64,000 nt of DNA from an uncultured Myxococcales bacterium (GTDB lineage: Bacteria > Myxococcota_A > Polyangia > Polyangiales > Polyangiaceae): assembly GCA_937902985.1 (NCBI GenBank), contig CALFNG010000446.1, positions 1 through 64,000 on the forward strand. The letters are read 5' to 3'. Position 1 is the first letter of the stretch. Each line of letters begins with the position of its first letter. This document shows positions 1 to 55,475 of the stretch, in pieces. Both the position numbers and the translations under genes were made by a program. Below the pieces are notes generated by a model. It saw only the letters and a list, made by a program, of their open reading frames with translations, had not been told where the DNA came from and searched no databases.

Positions 1-308
1 TCGTCATCTCTCGGCACACGACGGGTCTTCGCTCGAGTGACGGCTCGTCATCTCTCGGCACACGACGGGTCTTCGCTCGAGTGATGGCTCGTCGTCTATC
101 GGCACACGACGGGTCTTCGCTCGAGTGATGGCTGGTCGTCTCTCGGCACACGACGGGTCTTCGCTCGAGTGACGGCTCGTCGTCTATCGGCACACGACGG
201 GTCTTCGCTCGAGTGATGGCTCGTCGTCTATCGGCACACGACGGGTCTTCGCTCGAGTGATGGCTGGTCGTCTCTCGGCACACGACGGGTCTTCGCTCGA
301 GTGACGGC
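1..308. repeat. Tandem array, 7 x 44 bp, near-identical units
   Basis: Seven back-to-back 44-bp units start at 1, 45, 89, 133, 177, 221 and 265. The array touches the window edge, so it may be longer. All units share the internal block CGGCACACGACGGGTCTTCG; variation is limited to a few positions at the unit ends (TCGTCA/TCGTCG/TGGTCG and GTGACGGC/GTGATGGC). Units 3, 5 and 6 are identical, as are units 4 and 7, which points to duplication of multi-unit blocks. Because 44 is not a multiple of 3 the array cannot encode a repeated peptide in one frame. Most units contain a short inverted repeat (CGTCGT paired with ACGACG across about 10 nt). There are no spacers between units, so this is not a CRISPR array. 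Function unknown. Confidence 0.97.
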
Positions 309-531
309 TCCTGCAGCGACATGGGGGGCGGAGTGTGTCGCCCGACCCAATCGCCTGGAGCGACATGGACCACGGTGCATTTGCATGCTCAGGTCCCCGT
401 GGAGCGACATTCTCGACCCCATAGGTCGCCTCACCGACCGCGGTAGGGCGGCATGGACAGCCAGGCATGTCCCTTCACCGAAGATGGTGAGGCGACATTC
501 ACCCGTGCGGATTCGCGATCGACCCGCACGG
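309..531. repeat. Divergent 44-bp periodic array with GCGACAT core
   Basis: Immediately right of the homogeneous array the 44-bp period continues in a different sequence. The heptamer GCGACAT occurs at 316, 360, 404 and 492, and as GCGGCAT at 448, each exactly 44 bp from the next. Each unit begins with T four bases before the core (312, 356, 400, 444, 488), giving a consensus near TGGAGCGACATGGA, while the remaining roughly 30 bp differ completely. Every variable part contains an inverted repeat: GGGCG/CGCCC, GGACC/GGTCC, CGACC/GGTCG, GGACA/TGTCC and CCGTGCGG/CCGCACGG. Short pairs of five are expected fairly often by chance; the 8-bp pair is not. A sixth unit around 532-575 is too eroded to call. 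No coding frame fits. Confidence 0.85.
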
Positions 532-837
532 CGGCTGCCATGCGAATGGCCCGTCTTGCGGCAGGCGTCGGCCTCCTGCAGGCTCCTGGCAGCGCAGAGG
601 CCGGAGTTCCCGGCCGACTGACCTGCGCAGAAAGACACGCGAGATCGAGCTTGCAGAGTGTGCCAACTTCAGCGCTGAGCTGACGGGAATGTCAGAGACC
701 ATGGCCGGCCCGGCGTTCTCTCAAGGGCGATTCATGTATGATTCCTCGGCGATGCGAGGCGAGCGCAGGGCGGGCGCAGGAAGTGCATCGAGCCCGTCCG
801 GGCTGGTGAGAGCACGGTCCGCCGCGGAGGGTGTTTC
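532..837. other. Non-coding leader between array and first gene
   Basis: No gene is recognisable here. A perfect 6-bp inverted repeat, GGCCGG-agttc-CCGGCC, lies at 599-615 and could form a stable hairpin, but it has no T-run. The last 15 bases carry a purine-rich GCGGAGGG (826-833), a usable ribosome binding site for the gene at 838. I see no clear promoter boxes. Confidence 0.5.
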
Positions 838-2280
838 ATGAATCGATCGGCGCTTGCCTTGGGGATCGGTGTGACGGTGTCCGCGCTCGGCTTTGCGGGG
901 GAGCGCGATGCGGCGGCGTGCGGCGGATGCTTCCATCCCCCCACCCAGACGGCCTCGGACATCACCGACGAGCGCATGCTGCTCTCGGTCTCCCCGACGC
1001 AGACGACGCTCTACGATCAGATCGAGTACGCCGGGAGCCCCTCCTCCTTTGCGTGGGTCCTGCCGATTCACGGGACGGTTGCCGTCGGCCTGAGCGCGGA
1101 CGTCCTCTTCGACTCGATCGACGAGCTCACCGCGACGCAGATCGTCGCGCCGAGCGGGTGCCCGGGTCCTCCGAGCAGCTGCCAGAGCGGCAGCAAGAGC
1201 GGCGCCGCAAGCCTCGCGGGAGAAGACTCGGCCGGCGGCACCGTGACGGTGACGAAGCAGCAGAACGTCGGCCCGTACGACACCGTCCAGCTGCACGCGA
1301 CCGACTCGAGCGCGCTCAACGCATGGCTCGCGGCCAACGGCTTCAGCATCCCCGCAGAGGTCAAGCCGGTCATCGACGAGTACGTCAAGGAGGGCTTCGA
1401 CTTCCTCGCGATGAAGCTGCTCCCCGACCAGGGGGTGCAGGCGATGCGCCCCGTGCGCGTCACCACGCCGGGGGCGTCGTTCTCGCTTCCGCTGCGAATG
1501 GCGGCCGTCGGAACGGGCGCCGCGGTCGGCATCACGATCTGGGTCGTCAGCGATGGGCGGTACGAGCCGCAGAATTTCCCCTTCTTCCACATCGAGGACC
1601 CGGAGCTCGTCTGGGACTGGAGCACGAGTTCTAGCAACTACACGGCGCTCCGCTCGAAGAAGGAGGCCGCGCTCGGCGGCAAGGGGTGGGAGATCGAGAG
1701 CTCGATCGCGCTCAGCCAGGCCCTCGTGACCAACGTCATCCTGAGCGGCGGATACTACAGCGGCAACGGCAGCGGCGGCCTCGCGGGCGCCGCCCCCGCG
1801 GACCCGACGCAGGATTACCTCGCCGTCGGCGCTTCCGACGGGGGAGCCGAGGGCGGCGCCGCCGAGACGGCCGAGCAGGTCCGGACCGACGACATCAACG
1901 CGCTCTTTGCCGGGGTCCCCGGGCCGAACACGCGCATCACCCGCATGCGAAGCGACATCGCGCACGCCGCGATGACCGTCGACTTCGTCCTTCGCGCGTC
2001 GGCCGATCAAGCGGAGCTCTCGAACGTTCGCAGCGTGACCCAGAGCGTGAACCTCCAGTGCCCGATCTACGGATCGTCGCCGTTCGGCCTGACGCCGGGC
2101 TCGAGCTGCAACGTCGTCGGGTACGGGCCGCCCGCGCAGGCCGCGGGCGCCTCGGGGAGCGGGGGGTGCGCCGCCGCGGCGCCGTCGACCCGCTACCCGT
2201 GGACCGGCCTCGCCATGCTCGTCGGGTTGGTCGGGCTCGTCGCGGTTCGCGTGGTCCGCGCGCGTCGCCCGCGCATTTGA
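838..2280 (+). CDS. DUF2330 domain protein with MYXO-CTERM-like tail
   Basis: 480 residues. An N-terminal signal peptide (about 1-27) is followed by ACGGCF and then the DUF2330 body, with its LPIHG motif and scattered cysteines (about 27-330). DUF2330 proteins are secreted proteins of unknown function common in myxobacteria and actinobacteria. The C-terminus has a glycine/serine linker, a single Cys in SGGCAAAA, one hydrophobic helix (about 452-472) and a terminal Arg cluster (RARRPRI). That is the layout of MYXO-CTERM sorting tails, though the Cys context is not the textbook one. The start at 838 has GCGGAGGG just upstream. The likely location is the outer surface, anchored by the tail. The gene stands alone; what follows is gene debris. 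Confidence 0.85.
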   Translation: MNRSALALGIGVTVSALGFAGERDAAACGGCFHPPTQTASDITDERMLLSVSPTQTTLYDQIEYAGSPSSFAWVLPIHGTVAVGLSADVLFDSIDELTATQIVAPSGCPGPPSSCQSGSKSGAASLAGEDSAGGTVTVTKQQNVGPYDTVQLHATDSSALNAWLAANGFSIPAEVKPVIDEYVKEGFDFLAMKLLPDQGVQAMRPVRVTTPGASFSLPLRMAAVGTGAAVGITIWVVSDGRYEPQNFPFFHIEDPELVWDWSTSSSNYTALRSKKEAALGGKGWEIESSIALSQALVTNVILSGGYYSGNGSGGLAGAAPADPTQDYLAVGASDGGAEGGAAETAEQVRTDDINALFAGVPGPNTRITRMRSDIAHAAMTVDFVLRASADQAELSNVRSVTQSVNLQCPIYGSSPFGLTPGSSCNVVGYGPPAQAAGASGSGGCAAAAPSTRYPWTGLAMLVGLVGLVAVRVVRARRPRI

Positions 2281-13164: not shown

Positions 13165-13474
13165 GTCTGCCGTGCACGGCGTGGACCGCTTCTCCCCAGG
13201 CGACGACGCTGAGGCGACGAGGACGAGACTGAGGCGACCAGGCCGAGGCGACGCGTGTCGAGGCGGTGCCTCGACGATGCGCGCGGTCCACCGGGGCCCG
13301 ACCGCCCGATTGGCGCCCGATTGGCGCCCGATTGGCGCCCGATTGGCGGTCGACGGCCCGACGGAAAATCACCGCTCTTTTGTGTATGACGTGACGCGCA
13401 AACCGCCGCCCTTCGATCACTTGACATTCAGCTTTCGCAGATGCCGAACGCATGCAAAGATAGGCAAGCATCAT
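13165..13474. other. Divergent intergenic region
   Basis: 310 bp between the AsmA-like gene and the serine recombinase. It holds degenerate copies of GCTGAGGCGACGAGG (13200-13255), an 11-bp tandem repeat (13303-13346) and one perfect TTGACA (13421-13426) with no convincing -10 at 16-18 bp. No gene is visible. Confidence 0.6.
13303..13346. repeat. 11-bp tandem repeat, 4 copies
   Basis: CGCCCGATTGG is repeated four times without error, followed by a diverged CGGTCG. The period is close to one helical turn, so any protein bound to each copy would sit on the same face. It lies in a divergent promoter region. Confidence 0.92.
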
Positions 13475-15766: not shown

Positions 15767-18313
15767 TTAAGCGATCACGCGAAGCGATCCGCGAACGACT
15801 CCGTATCCGCCATCGGCCTTCAGTGTCTTCAACTCGCGCCAGACCTCGGCGGGAGTGCTCTTGCCTTGCAAGAGAGCTCGGTAACTCGACACGATCGTTG
15901 CGACCTCGGCCGCAGGCTCGCGCACAAGCTCGATCCTGAACCGACGGACCGCTCGCGCGAGGAGCAATGGAACCAGAGTCGCCGCGCTTTGCGCCGAGCC
16001 GTGGAAGATCGTGTTCCGGCAACCGACATCGGCCTCGACCGGATGGAGCACGCCTGCCCGGTCGCGCAGCGATACCGCGTGCGACTCGCACGGCCGGCCG
16101 CAGCTCTTGTGATCGCGGCCGTCGGAGAGGAGCGCCGCGATCACGCAGTGCTCCATGTGGAAGAGGGGCATCGGGTGATGAACGACCACTTCGGCGAAGG
16201 GGGCGAAGGCCGAGCGCGTCAGCGCCGTCAGCTGGTCCGCGTCGAGGTCGAACGACGGTGTGAACGCAACGAGTCCGCGCTCGAGGATCGCCGCCGCGGC
16301 GAGCTTGTTGGCGATGTTGAGCGAGAAGTCACCGATGCGGTCGATCCCGGCGGCGTCGCCGGTCGGCGCGTCGCGCAAGCTTCCGAGGCTGCGGACGAGC
16401 AGCGCGTCGGGCTGGAGCTGCTCGAGGTAGCGATCGATCTTCTCGTCGCCGGGCTTGCGGATGCGCGGCGCGGCGAGGGTCACGTGAACGCGCGCGGCGC
16501 GGGACCGAAGCGCGCGCAAGGCGGCCCCTGTGCCGACGAGCTCGAGAAAGTCGAGGTACACGCCGTCGGCGCCAGCGTCGACCGCCGCCTCGGCCTGGGC
16601 GAGGTTCCTGCACAGTACGAAGAGCCCCGCCGGCGGCGGAGGGCGATCCGGCGGGTGGGCAGCTGCGAGAAGATCACCGTGCGTCACCGGCGTCGTCTCC
16701 GTCGCTTCGCCCTCGACGCCCGACGCCGTGAGCGCGTCGGTGAGCGCTCGCCGCGCCCGGTTCAGGCTCGAGATCGGCAGCATGGCCCCTTCCGGAACGT
16801 CGAGCTCGAGCGACCCGAGAACGAACGGAGTCTCGCCGAGGCGACCGAGTTTTTCGCGGATCGCCTCGGGCGTCGTCGCGGTGGTGTGCGCCCTCTCGAG
16901 CGGGGCGTCGCCCCGGACGGTCGCGCGAGCCCCGCGCTCGGTCGCCGCTTCGAACCGGGGAAGCTCGCCGAGCTTCCCGCTCACCCTCACGTCGAGCCGC
17001 ACGCGATGCGGACTCCTGAGGGACGCGAGCGCCTGCTTTTCGCGCACGGGATCGCTGGTTTTCCACACCCGCGCGCCGGAGCGAGCCGCGGCATCGACGC
17101 GTCGATCCGGCCCGAGCCAGAGCCAGATCTCGCGCCCTATCTCGGCGCGTTCGACCTCGACGCCCCCGTCGAAGAGCGCCCAGACCCGGCCGCCGACCTC
17201 TCCCTCGCCGCGCTCGCCCTCGACCAGCAACCCGTCGCCCCGCGCTACCGGCGCGGTCGTCGAGAGGCCGACGCACCTCTTTCCACGAACCGTCCGCAGC
17301 CCGAGCGACTTGCCCGCCGGGAGGCCGCGGTGGTCGCACGTCAGGCCCTCGACCAGGCGCTGGTGATCGACCCCGCGCAAGAACCCCGGTCCGGATCCGC
17401 GCGTGTACATCTGGAGCGCGGTTGCGCGATCTTCGTCCGTGGGTCCGGCGCCGCCCGCGAGCGCATCGACCGCGCGTCGATAAAGCCTCGTCGTCGCGGC
17501 GACGTACTCCGGGCCCTTCAAGCGTCCCTCGATCTTCAGAGACACGACGCCGAGCCGCGCGAGATCGGGCACGAGCGCGCTCGCTTCGAGATCCTCGGGC
17601 GACAGGAGGTGAGCCACTCCGCCGAGATCCCGATCGACGCCGTCGACCACGAGCTCGTAAGGCAGCCTGCAAGCCTGAGCGCACGCTCCCCGATTGGCGC
17701 TTCGACCGCCGATCGCCTCGCTCGTCAGGCACTGGCCCGAGTAGGCGATGCAGAGCGCGCCGTGAACGAAGACCTCGAGCTCGACGTCCGTGCCCGCGCG
17801 GATCGCCGCGATGTCGTCGAGCGACAGCTCGCGCGCCAGCACCACCCTGCGCGCACCGAAGTCCCGCGCCAGCGCGACGCTCGCCGCGTCCGTGCAGGTC
17901 ATCTGGGTCGAGGCGTGAACAGCCATAGCCGGAGCGACGGCTCGAACCAGCCGGGCGACGCCGAGATCCTGCACGATGACGGCATCGACGCGGGCAGCCG
18001 AACATGCCCTCACTTGCCGCTCGAGTCGATCGAGCTCGTCGTCGAAGACGAGTGTGTTCAGCGCTACGTACCCGCGCACGCCGCGACCGTGGAGAAAGCC
18101 CATCGTCTCCGAGAGCCCGTCGGGATCGAAATTGGTCGCTCGCGCCCGTGCGCTCGTGCCCGGGAGCCCGAAGTACACGGCGTCGGCGCCAGCGGCCACG
18201 GCGGCTCGCATGGCGTCGGCGTCGCCGGCGGGAGCGAGCACTTCGGGCAAGCGAGGCAAGCGAGGCAAGCGAGGCAAGCGAGGCAAGCGAGACAAGCGAG
18301 ACACGACGGACAT
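15767..18313 (-). CDS. U32 family (RlhA/PrtC-like) protein
   Basis: 848 residues. The U32 core starts at VLAPAGDADAMRAAVAAGAD (about 25) and has the signature VFVHGALCIAYSGQCL then RSANRGACAQACR, whose cysteines bind an Fe-S cluster in characterised members. A DUF3656-like middle region and a second U32-like half (about 570-780, with HHPMPLFHMEHC and KSCGRPC) match the RlhA arrangement. E. coli RlhA takes part in 23S rRNA C2501 hydroxylation together with prephenate. The first 22 residues, a run of LPR triplets, are encoded by a 9-bp minisatellite (18247-18300) and are not part of the family. ATG 18313 is the only obvious start upstream of the repeat. Confidence 0.85.
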   Translation of the reverse strand: MSVVSRLSRLPRLPRLPRLPRLPEVLAPAGDADAMRAAVAAGADAVYFGLPGTSARARATNFDPDGLSETMGFLHGRGVRGYVALNTLVFDDELDRLERQVRACSAARVDAVIVQDLGVARLVRAVAPAMAVHASTQMTCTDAASVALARDFGARRVVLARELSLDDIAAIRAGTDVELEVFVHGALCIAYSGQCLTSEAIGGRSANRGACAQACRLPYELVVDGVDRDLGGVAHLLSPEDLEASALVPDLARLGVVSLKIEGRLKGPEYVAATTRLYRRAVDALAGGAGPTDEDRATALQMYTRGSGPGFLRGVDHQRLVEGLTCDHRGLPAGKSLGLRTVRGKRCVGLSTTAPVARGDGLLVEGERGEGEVGGRVWALFDGGVEVERAEIGREIWLWLGPDRRVDAAARSGARVWKTSDPVREKQALASLRSPHRVRLDVRVSGKLGELPRFEAATERGARATVRGDAPLERAHTTATTPEAIREKLGRLGETPFVLGSLELDVPEGAMLPISSLNRARRALTDALTASGVEGEATETTPVTHGDLLAAAHPPDRPPPPAGLFVLCRNLAQAEAAVDAGADGVYLDFLELVGTGAALRALRSRAARVHVTLAAPRIRKPGDEKIDRYLEQLQPDALLVRSLGSLRDAPTGDAAGIDRIGDFSLNIANKLAAAAILERGLVAFTPSFDLDADQLTALTRSAFAPFAEVVVHHPMPLFHMEHCVIAALLSDGRDHKSCGRPCESHAVSLRDRAGVLHPVEADVGCRNTIFHGSAQSAATLVPLLLARAVRRFRIELVREPAAEVATIVSSYRALLQGKSTPAEVWRELKTLKADGGYGVVRGSLRVIA
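18247..18300. repeat. 9-bp minisatellite inside the U32 gene start
   Basis: GCAAGCGAG is repeated five times, and a sixth copy has one change (ACAAGCGAG). On the coding (minus) strand it encodes Leu-Pro-Arg repeats. Copy-number change would add or remove three residues without shifting frame. Confidence 0.93.
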
Positions 18314-55425: not shown

Positions 55426-55475
55426 CCACGTTCTCCACGTTCTCCACGTTCTCCACGTTCTCCACGTTCTCCACG
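55426..55475. repeat. 9-bp minisatellite, 5.5 copies
   Basis: CCACGTTCT is repeated five times plus a partial unit in the 5' region of atpD. No gene uses this region; the opposite strand would encode Glu-Asn-Val repeats but has no start context. Confidence 0.93.

What the first reader, a model, noticed from the sequence alone, without database searches (positions are those of the whole stretch)
309..531. Strict 44-bp periodic array with a fixed heptamer and variable hairpin-bearing arms
GCGACAT recurs at 316, 360, 404 and 492 and as GCGGCAT at 448, all exactly 44 bp apart, while the roughly 30 bp between cores share nothing. Chance recurrence at a fixed period is negligible. Each variable arm holds an inverted repeat, in one case 8 bp (CCGTGCGG/CCGCACGG). 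Fixed core plus unique arms with internal pairing is the design of guide- or recognition-element arrays (TIGR-like, CRISPR-like) or of a minisatellite decaying around a protein-binding core. Five-bp pairs alone are not significant in GC-rich DNA.
Basis: seen in the sequence. Interest (0 to 1): 0.82.

Follow-up and report, generated by a model that had tools for sequence, protein, structure and literature searches.

The report
Dispersed palindromic 44-bp intergenic repeat array
The array is one decayed copy of a repeated, self-complementary stretch of non-coding DNA scattered between genes of a single myxobacterium, most likely a species-specific satellite or mini mobile element and not a CRISPR- or TIGR-like guide array.

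Summary
In detail: cores at 316, 360, 404, 448 and 492, exactly 44 bp apart (no match in 1000 shuffles). It is not a guide array.

The same array occurs at eight other intergenic places in this genome. Less decayed copies show the true unit: GCGACAT-N12-ATGTCGC-N18, two inverted cores per 44 bp. The "unique" arms are not unique: units at the same place in arrays at different loci share 64-69% of their arms, different units within one array 38-44% (chance 27%). The direct core is 91% conserved. Five loci share one right end and three share one left end, so it is a discrete dispersed element with a variable number of 44-bp units.

The tandem at 1-310 belongs to a second 44-bp group (about ten loci). 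Ten of 19 arrays lie within 100 bp of a contig end (0.28 expected), so they run longer than assembled.

The triple-core array is absent from 84,980 species genomes and viral contigs, and 37 relatives show only chance-level dyads. No Nop-domain protein, RAYT transposase or Rfam match was found, and the core stem shows no covariation.

Best reading: a lineage-specific palindromic satellite or MITE-like element, with the core kept by protein recognition or by copying.

The parts
1..310 (.). Seven near-identical 44-bp tandem units (TCGTCGTCTCTCGGCACACGACGGGTCTTCGCTCGAGTGATGGC), a member of the second group of 44-bp arrays; cut off by the contig start
   Evidence: TRF: 7.0 copies, 95% matches; relatives at C142, C65, C280, C479, C7, C256, C356, C541, C224 and C47
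309..503 (+). Decayed right-hand part of the dispersed family-1 element: five 44-bp units
   Evidence: Lag-44 identity 0.48, 0 of 1000 shuffles; 73-75% identical to arrays at C365, C128 and C207; same unit order
316..322 (+). Direct core GCGACAT, unit 1
335..341 (-). Decayed inverse core GTGTCGC (intact form ATGTCGC), 19 bp after the direct core
360..366 (+). Direct core GCGACAT, unit 2
404..410 (+). Direct core GCGACAT, unit 3; arm TCTCGACC shared with C365, C207 and C128
423..429 (-). Decayed inverse core AGGTCGC
448..454 (+). Direct core, variant GCGGCAT, unit 4; arm GGACA shared with C365, C207 and C128
467..473 (-). Decayed inverse core ATGTCCC
489..503 (+). Conserved right end GAGGCGACATTCACC: last unit, shared by five loci and followed by unrelated DNA in each
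503..531 (.). 8-bp hairpin CCGTGCGG/CCGCACGG beyond the element's right end; specific to this locus
838..2280 (+). Nearest gene to the right, a DUF2330 protein (PF10092); not related to genes flanking the other arrays

Best explanation
A lineage-specific, non-coding, dispersed palindromic satellite or mini-element. Shown: about nine intergenic copies of one element with conserved ends and a variable number of 44-bp units, each unit holding two inverted cores (GCGACAT-N12-ATGTCGC-N18). Also shown: the window copy is the decayed right-hand part of that element, joined to an array of a second 44-bp group. Inferred: units multiply and drop out by slippage and unequal recombination. New loci are seeded by copying a whole element, either through a transposase or recombinase acting in trans or through recombination. 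Inverted copies are kept alike by hairpin template switching. The core outlasts the arms because something recognises it, either the spreading machinery or a DNA-binding dimer that sits on sites two helical turns (22 bp) apart. It tolerates only intergenic places.
For: Homologous arrays in exact 44-bp register at nine loci: 27 dyads in this genome against 0 in the reversed-pattern control. Same-position units at different loci keep 64-69% of their arms and 91% of the direct core; different units in one locus keep 38-44% of their arms; chance is 27%. One whole unit present in C446, C365 and C128 is missing from C207, as tandem slippage gives. Shared left end GCGAGCCAARAGCGAC at three loci and shared right end GAGGCGACATTCAC (or a close variant) at five, with unrelated flanks; C255 carries both in about 320 bp. 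Units within C192 and C418 are nearly identical, so recent local expansion. All sampled arrays are intergenic. Ten of 19 arrays lie at contig ends against 0.28 expected, the mark of longer repeats that stopped the assembler. The triple-core array has no match in 84,980 species genomes or in viral contigs, window 1-560 none in phages or plasmids, and the dyad is at chance level in 37 relatives. A relative (G021) has its own, unrelated 42/43-bp palindromic arrays at three loci, so this kind of repeat arises repeatedly in the group.
Against: No transposase or recombinase was identified; RAYT is absent. No target-site duplication was seen at C255. The direct core is conserved much better than the arms, which pure neutral drift does not explain. 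The genome is a draft in 563 contigs, so neither copy number nor full array length is known. The kdpE orthologue in a same-genus genome lacks the array, but its neighbours differ, so it is not a clean empty site.
Confidence: 0.72

Rival explanations
1. Arrays of binding sites for a host protein (nucleoid-associated, segregation or transcription-related dimer): the alternating cores 22 bp apart lie on one face of the helix and load a cooperative filament or act as a boundary, as suggested for BIMEs.
For: Direct core 91% conserved between loci against 64-69% for arms. Perfect 19/25-bp alternation kept in nine arrays. Arrays often face gene 3' ends, including four clear convergent gene pairs.
Against: Every exact dyad in the genome lies in an array; there are no solitary sites, as a regulon would have. 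Absent from same-genus genomes. By my count 17 of 27 flanking gene ends facing arrays are 3' ends, not a significant excess. No candidate protein.
Confidence: 0.17
2. Non-autonomous mobile element (MITE- or REPIN-like) with defined ends, moved by a transposase in trans, the 44-bp array being its cargo or subterminal binding sites.
For: Shared left ends (three loci) and right ends (five loci) with unrelated flanks; C255 carries both and also GTGAATGTCGCCTC / GAGGCGACATTCAC in inverted orientation.
Against: No target-site duplication found at C255; the inverted copy on the left is internal, about 90 bp inside the left end; no Y1 transposase in the genome; no other transposase was tested. This overlaps the best explanation, which leaves the spreading route open.
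Confidence: 0.25
3. RNA-guided array (TIGR-like or CRISPR-like): arms are guides, cores are repeats read by a Nop-domain or other protein.
For: Layout of two alternating ~10-nt repeats with 12-nt spacers is close to TIGR dual-repeat arrays. Strong single-strand folding, z = -4.2 and -4.7.
Against: Arms are homologous between loci and in some arrays nearly identical from unit to unit. No Nop-domain match in the genome at E up to 1. No Rfam match on the arrays scanned. No promoter- or terminator-like site at the window array. Core stem changes are not compensated. Flanking genes are unrelated to one another.
Confidence: 0.02
4. A structured RNA or mRNA 3'-end hairpin array that stabilises or ends transcripts.
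For: Arrays fold better than shuffles. Several lie between convergent genes. Weak covariation at the centre of the longer arm, pairs 13-18 and 14-17.
Against: Seven core pairs show no compensatory change (paired 0.75 against 0.76 shuffled); the other arm shows none. Arrays also lie upstream of genes (C192, C418, C446). The alternating layout lets both strands fold, as any inverted DNA repeat would.
Confidence: 0.06

Closest known systems
REP / BIME (repetitive extragenic palindromes in alternating orientation)
   Same: Extragenic, palindromic, regularly spaced cores in alternating orientation, clustered, lineage-specific (PMC2817692)
   Different: No RAYT-type transposase in the genome; no GTAG foot in the consensus; strict 44-bp period; arms drift with position; dozens of units detected rather than the usual >100 copies
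CGTC-tagged palindromic repeats
   Same: Short palindromes without a dedicated transposase (PMC3733652)
   Different: Those have 8-9-bp stems, 4-5-nt loops and a CCA tail, and are mostly dimers, rarely clusters; here long arrays of 44-bp units with 12-nt and 18-nt gaps
Bacterial minisatellites / VNTRs
   Same: Tandem units of tens of bases, intergenic, whole-unit gain and loss, near-identical local expansions, contig breaks
   Different: One homologous array with shared ends is dispersed to nine loci; each unit holds two inverted cores that outlast the arms
TIGR arrays (TIGR-Tas)
   Same: Two alternating ~10-nt repeats separated by ~12-nt variable stretches, tandemly repeated (PMC12045711)
   Different: No Nop-domain protein detected; arms homologous between loci; 44-nt and not 36-nt units; repeats are reverse complements of each other; in a bacterial chromosome at many intergenic loci
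MITEs
   Same: Short, non-coding, dispersed, with shared ends
   Different: Terminal inverted repeats not clearly at the very ends, no target-site duplication found, no partner transposase identified

Membership tests
TIGR-Tas | Nop-domain (Tas) protein next to the array | tested here: not met
   PF01798 gives no match in the whole genome at E<=1; Pfam of ten genes flanking seven arrays shows none. Caveat: a strongly diverged Tas could escape the Pfam model
TIGR-Tas | Two alternating 8-12-nt repeats interspaced by 9- to 12-nt spacers | tested here: inconclusive
   GCGACAT-N12-ATGTCGC-N18 fits in layout, but the two repeats are one inverted repeat and the unit is 44, not 36
TIGR-Tas | Spacers differ between units as guides to different targets | tested here: not met
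   Arms nearly identical in C192 and C418; homologous by position between loci
TIGR-Tas | Processed 36-nt RNAs | not testable with these tools
   No RNA data
CRISPR | Conserved direct repeats separated by unrelated spacers | tested here: not met
   Only 7-10-bp cores; arms homologous between loci
CRISPR | cas genes in the genome or next to the array | not tested
   Genes flanking seven arrays are ordinary; a genome-wide cas search was not made
REP/BIME | Extragenic palindromes, regularly spaced, alternating orientation | tested here: met
REP/BIME | Associated RAYT (Y1 transposase, PF01797) in the genome | tested here: not met
   No match in own genome; positive control genomes ring
REP/BIME | GTAG (or CGTC) foot at the palindrome | tested here: not met
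   Absent from family-1 consensus by inspection of 52 units. CGTC occurs inside the second group but without the published stem/loop/tail layout
MITE | Defined ends shared by copies with unrelated flanks | tested here: met
MITE | Terminal inverted repeats and target-site duplication | tested here: inconclusive
   Inverted 14-mer near both ends of C255, but the left one is internal; no duplication seen
Minisatellite / VNTR | Head-to-tail units of constant length with local homogenisation | tested here: met
Minisatellite / VNTR | Copy number differs between strains | not testable with these tools
   Only one genome of the species is held

The most novel reading that the evidence does not exclude
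A so far undescribed class of bacterial satellite: phased arrays of alternating inverted cores every 22 bp (two helical turns), recruited anew with different cores in different myxobacterial species, each read by a matching lineage-specific DNA-binding or recombinase protein that both spreads the arrays and organises the chromosome at them.
Probability: 0.12. Interest if true: 0.7.

Novelty: new variant of a known kind. Interest (0 to 1): 0.36.

Why it matters
It is a clear case in which variable arms around a fixed core look like guide RNA spacers in a single locus but turn out, once other loci are compared, to be position-specific drift of a dispersed repeat; this comparison is a cheap filter for guide-array candidates. 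As biology, it is a species-specific bacterial satellite family with defined ends, two inverted cores per unit and no known mover. A relative with its own unrelated 42/43-bp set suggests that large myxobacterial genomes make such families repeatedly.

Tried and rejected
Guide array (TIGR/CRISPR): rejected on arm homology, absence of a Nop-domain match and lack of covariation. REP with RAYT: no Y1 transposase. Known RNA family: Rfam gave only a tRNA and a weak sub-threshold snoRNA match, neither on an array. Phage or plasmid origin: no match. Coding repeat: 44 is not a multiple of three and the gene caller puts no gene there. Regulon operator: no solitary dyads. Position-1 neighbour: window base 1 is the contig start. 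Empty-site test at kdpE in G001: array absent, but neighbours differ, so inconclusive. Literature on myxobacterial intergenic or palindromic tandem repeats: nothing relevant found.

Full report
What is in the window. Positions 1-310 hold seven near-identical 44-bp tandem units. From 309 to about 503 the 44-bp period goes on in unrelated sequence: GCGACAT at 316, 360, 404 and 492 and GCGGCAT at 448. Lag-44 identity is 0.48 against 0.20-0.32 at neighbouring lags, and no dinucleotide shuffle of 1000 reached it or placed any 7-mer four times in one phase. Window base 1 is base 1 of contig C446 of an 8.3-Mb draft genome in 563 contigs. The closest named relatives of a gene flanking another of the arrays (C255) are Myxococcales/Polyangiaceae metagenome genomes and Labilithrix, so the host is inferred to be a Polyangiales myxobacterium.

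The array has sisters. A search of the genome with window 1-700 found related DNA on other contigs. Four of them (C365, C128, C207 and C101) carry the same kind of array as 309-531; pattern searches added C192, C255, C338 and C418. In all nine loci the direct cores are 44 bp apart and the inverse cores lie 19 bp after them (one 45-bp step in C207). Less decayed copies show the full unit: GCGACAT-N12-ATGTCGC-N18. All 27 exact or one-mismatch dyads of this genome lie in these arrays; the reversed control pattern gives none, and 37 relatives give zero or one each.

The arms are not spacers. Aligning C446, C365, C128 and C207 shows the same arms in the same order: GCGAGGCGGAGC, then TCTCGACC, then GGACA, then TCACCC. 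C207 lacks exactly one of the units. Over 39 comparisons of same-position units, identity is 0.91 in the direct core, 0.77 in the inverse core, 0.64 and 0.69 in the two arms. Different units of one locus share only 0.44 and 0.38 of their arms, and chance is 0.27. In C192 and C418 the units are nearly identical, a recent local expansion. The arms therefore mark position in one ancestral array that was copied to several places and drifted. This is the pattern of a dispersed repeat and the opposite of independently acquired guides.

The element has ends. Five loci (window, C365, C207, C128, C255) stop just after GGCGACATTCAC or its close variant and run into unrelated DNA. Three (C101, C192, C255) begin at GCGAGCCAARAGCGAC. 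C255 has both ends and measures about 320 bp. An inverted copy of the right-end 14-mer lies about 90 bp inside the left end of C255. No target-site duplication was seen.

The 1-310 tandem belongs to a second group. Relatives of it, all with period 44 where more than one unit is present and with pieces such as TCRTCRCTCGAGCGAYGA, lie at C142, C65, C280, C479, C7, C256, C356, C541, C224 and C47. C224 carries fifteen units that contain both GCGACATGA and TCATCGCTCGAG, so the two groups may share an origin (inference). Ten of 19 arrays of both groups lie within 100 bp of a contig end, where 0.28 would be expected. The arrays are longer than the assembly shows.

Where they lie. Every sampled array is between genes. 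Several stand between convergent genes (C101, C207, C255, C338), others upstream of genes (C192, C418, C446). By my own count of flanking gene ends, 17 of 27 are 3' ends; this is not a significant excess. Flanking genes differ from locus to locus: DUF2330, methyltransferase, SNF2 helicase, histidine kinase, response regulator, NUDIX, TPR.

Structure. As single strands the arrays fold better than shuffles (z -4.7 for C255, -4.2 for the window), which any inverted repeat would. Covariation over 52 units is absent in the seven core pairs (0.75 paired against 0.76 when shuffled) and in the 12-nt arm. It is present only at the two pairs next to the centre of the 18-nt arm (0.75 against 0.54, and 0.48 against 0.35). 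These central palindromes differ between units yet stay palindromic. Hairpin template switching in DNA, described for quasipalindromes (PMC7202029), would give this without selection. The evidence favours conservation of DNA sequence in the core over conservation of an RNA stem.

Distribution. No other genome among 84,980 species has the triple-core array, nor do viral contigs; a distant search of phage and plasmid records found nothing. Two same-genus genomes have none. The kdpE orthologue in one of them (80% identical) lacks the array, though its neighbours differ. In a relative (G021), a chance look at 100 kb found a 42-bp intergenic tandem with two palindromes per unit (AACCGGATCCGGTT and GGCAGCTG-type). 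It lies at three loci of that genome and in none of the other 57 searched. Species-specific palindromic arrays of 42-44 bp thus arose at least twice.

Mechanism. Shown: homology, common ends, loss of whole units, local homogenisation, intergenic placement, slower change of the direct core. Inferred: spread as a unit by an unidentified enzyme or by recombination, growth by slippage, and selection or recognition that keeps the core. Not shown: transcription, protein binding, mobility. Known movers tested: RAYT absent. Guide-RNA partner tested: Nop domain absent.

Classification. It works most like BIME or minisatellite DNA with MITE-like ends, but it fails the RAYT and GTAG criteria of REPs and the TIGR criteria, and the MITE criteria are open. 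I call it a new variant of a known kind, dispersed bacterial intergenic repeats. Interest is moderate: specialists would find a tidy, unusual repeat family; the guide-array reading that made it exciting is not supported.

Noticed in passing
L108:3692-4027, L187:1476-1770, L190:1476-1770 (relative G021): A relative has its own 42/43-bp intergenic tandem arrays at three loci, each unit with two palindromes, unrelated in sequence to the window's and absent from 57 other genomes
   Followed up: partly
L201:7788-8451 (own contig C224): Fifteen units of 44 bp that contain both GCGACATGA and TCATCGCTCGAG, a possible bridge between the two groups of arrays; runs off the contig end
   Followed up: partly
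L127:567-1218 (own contig C315): 650-bp intergenic stretch between divergent genes with weak 22/44-bp periodicity of CATCGCGCGCGYGATG-like palindromes; perhaps a very old array of the same kind
   Followed up: partly
L074:9626-9800 (own contig C256): 66-bp repeat (six times 11) of palindromic GATCGATGACCCC...GGGGTGATCG units directly beside a remnant of the second 44-bp group
   Followed up: no
window 13303-13348, 18246-18300, 55426-55475: Exact or nearly exact short tandems (11 bp x4, 9 bp x6, 9 bp x5.6)
   Followed up: no
L098, L099, L102, L103, L105 (relative G022): Many near-perfect intergenic tandem arrays of periods 34 to 112 within 200 kb, far denser than in the window's genome, perhaps because that genome is finished and this one is a draft
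   Followed up: no
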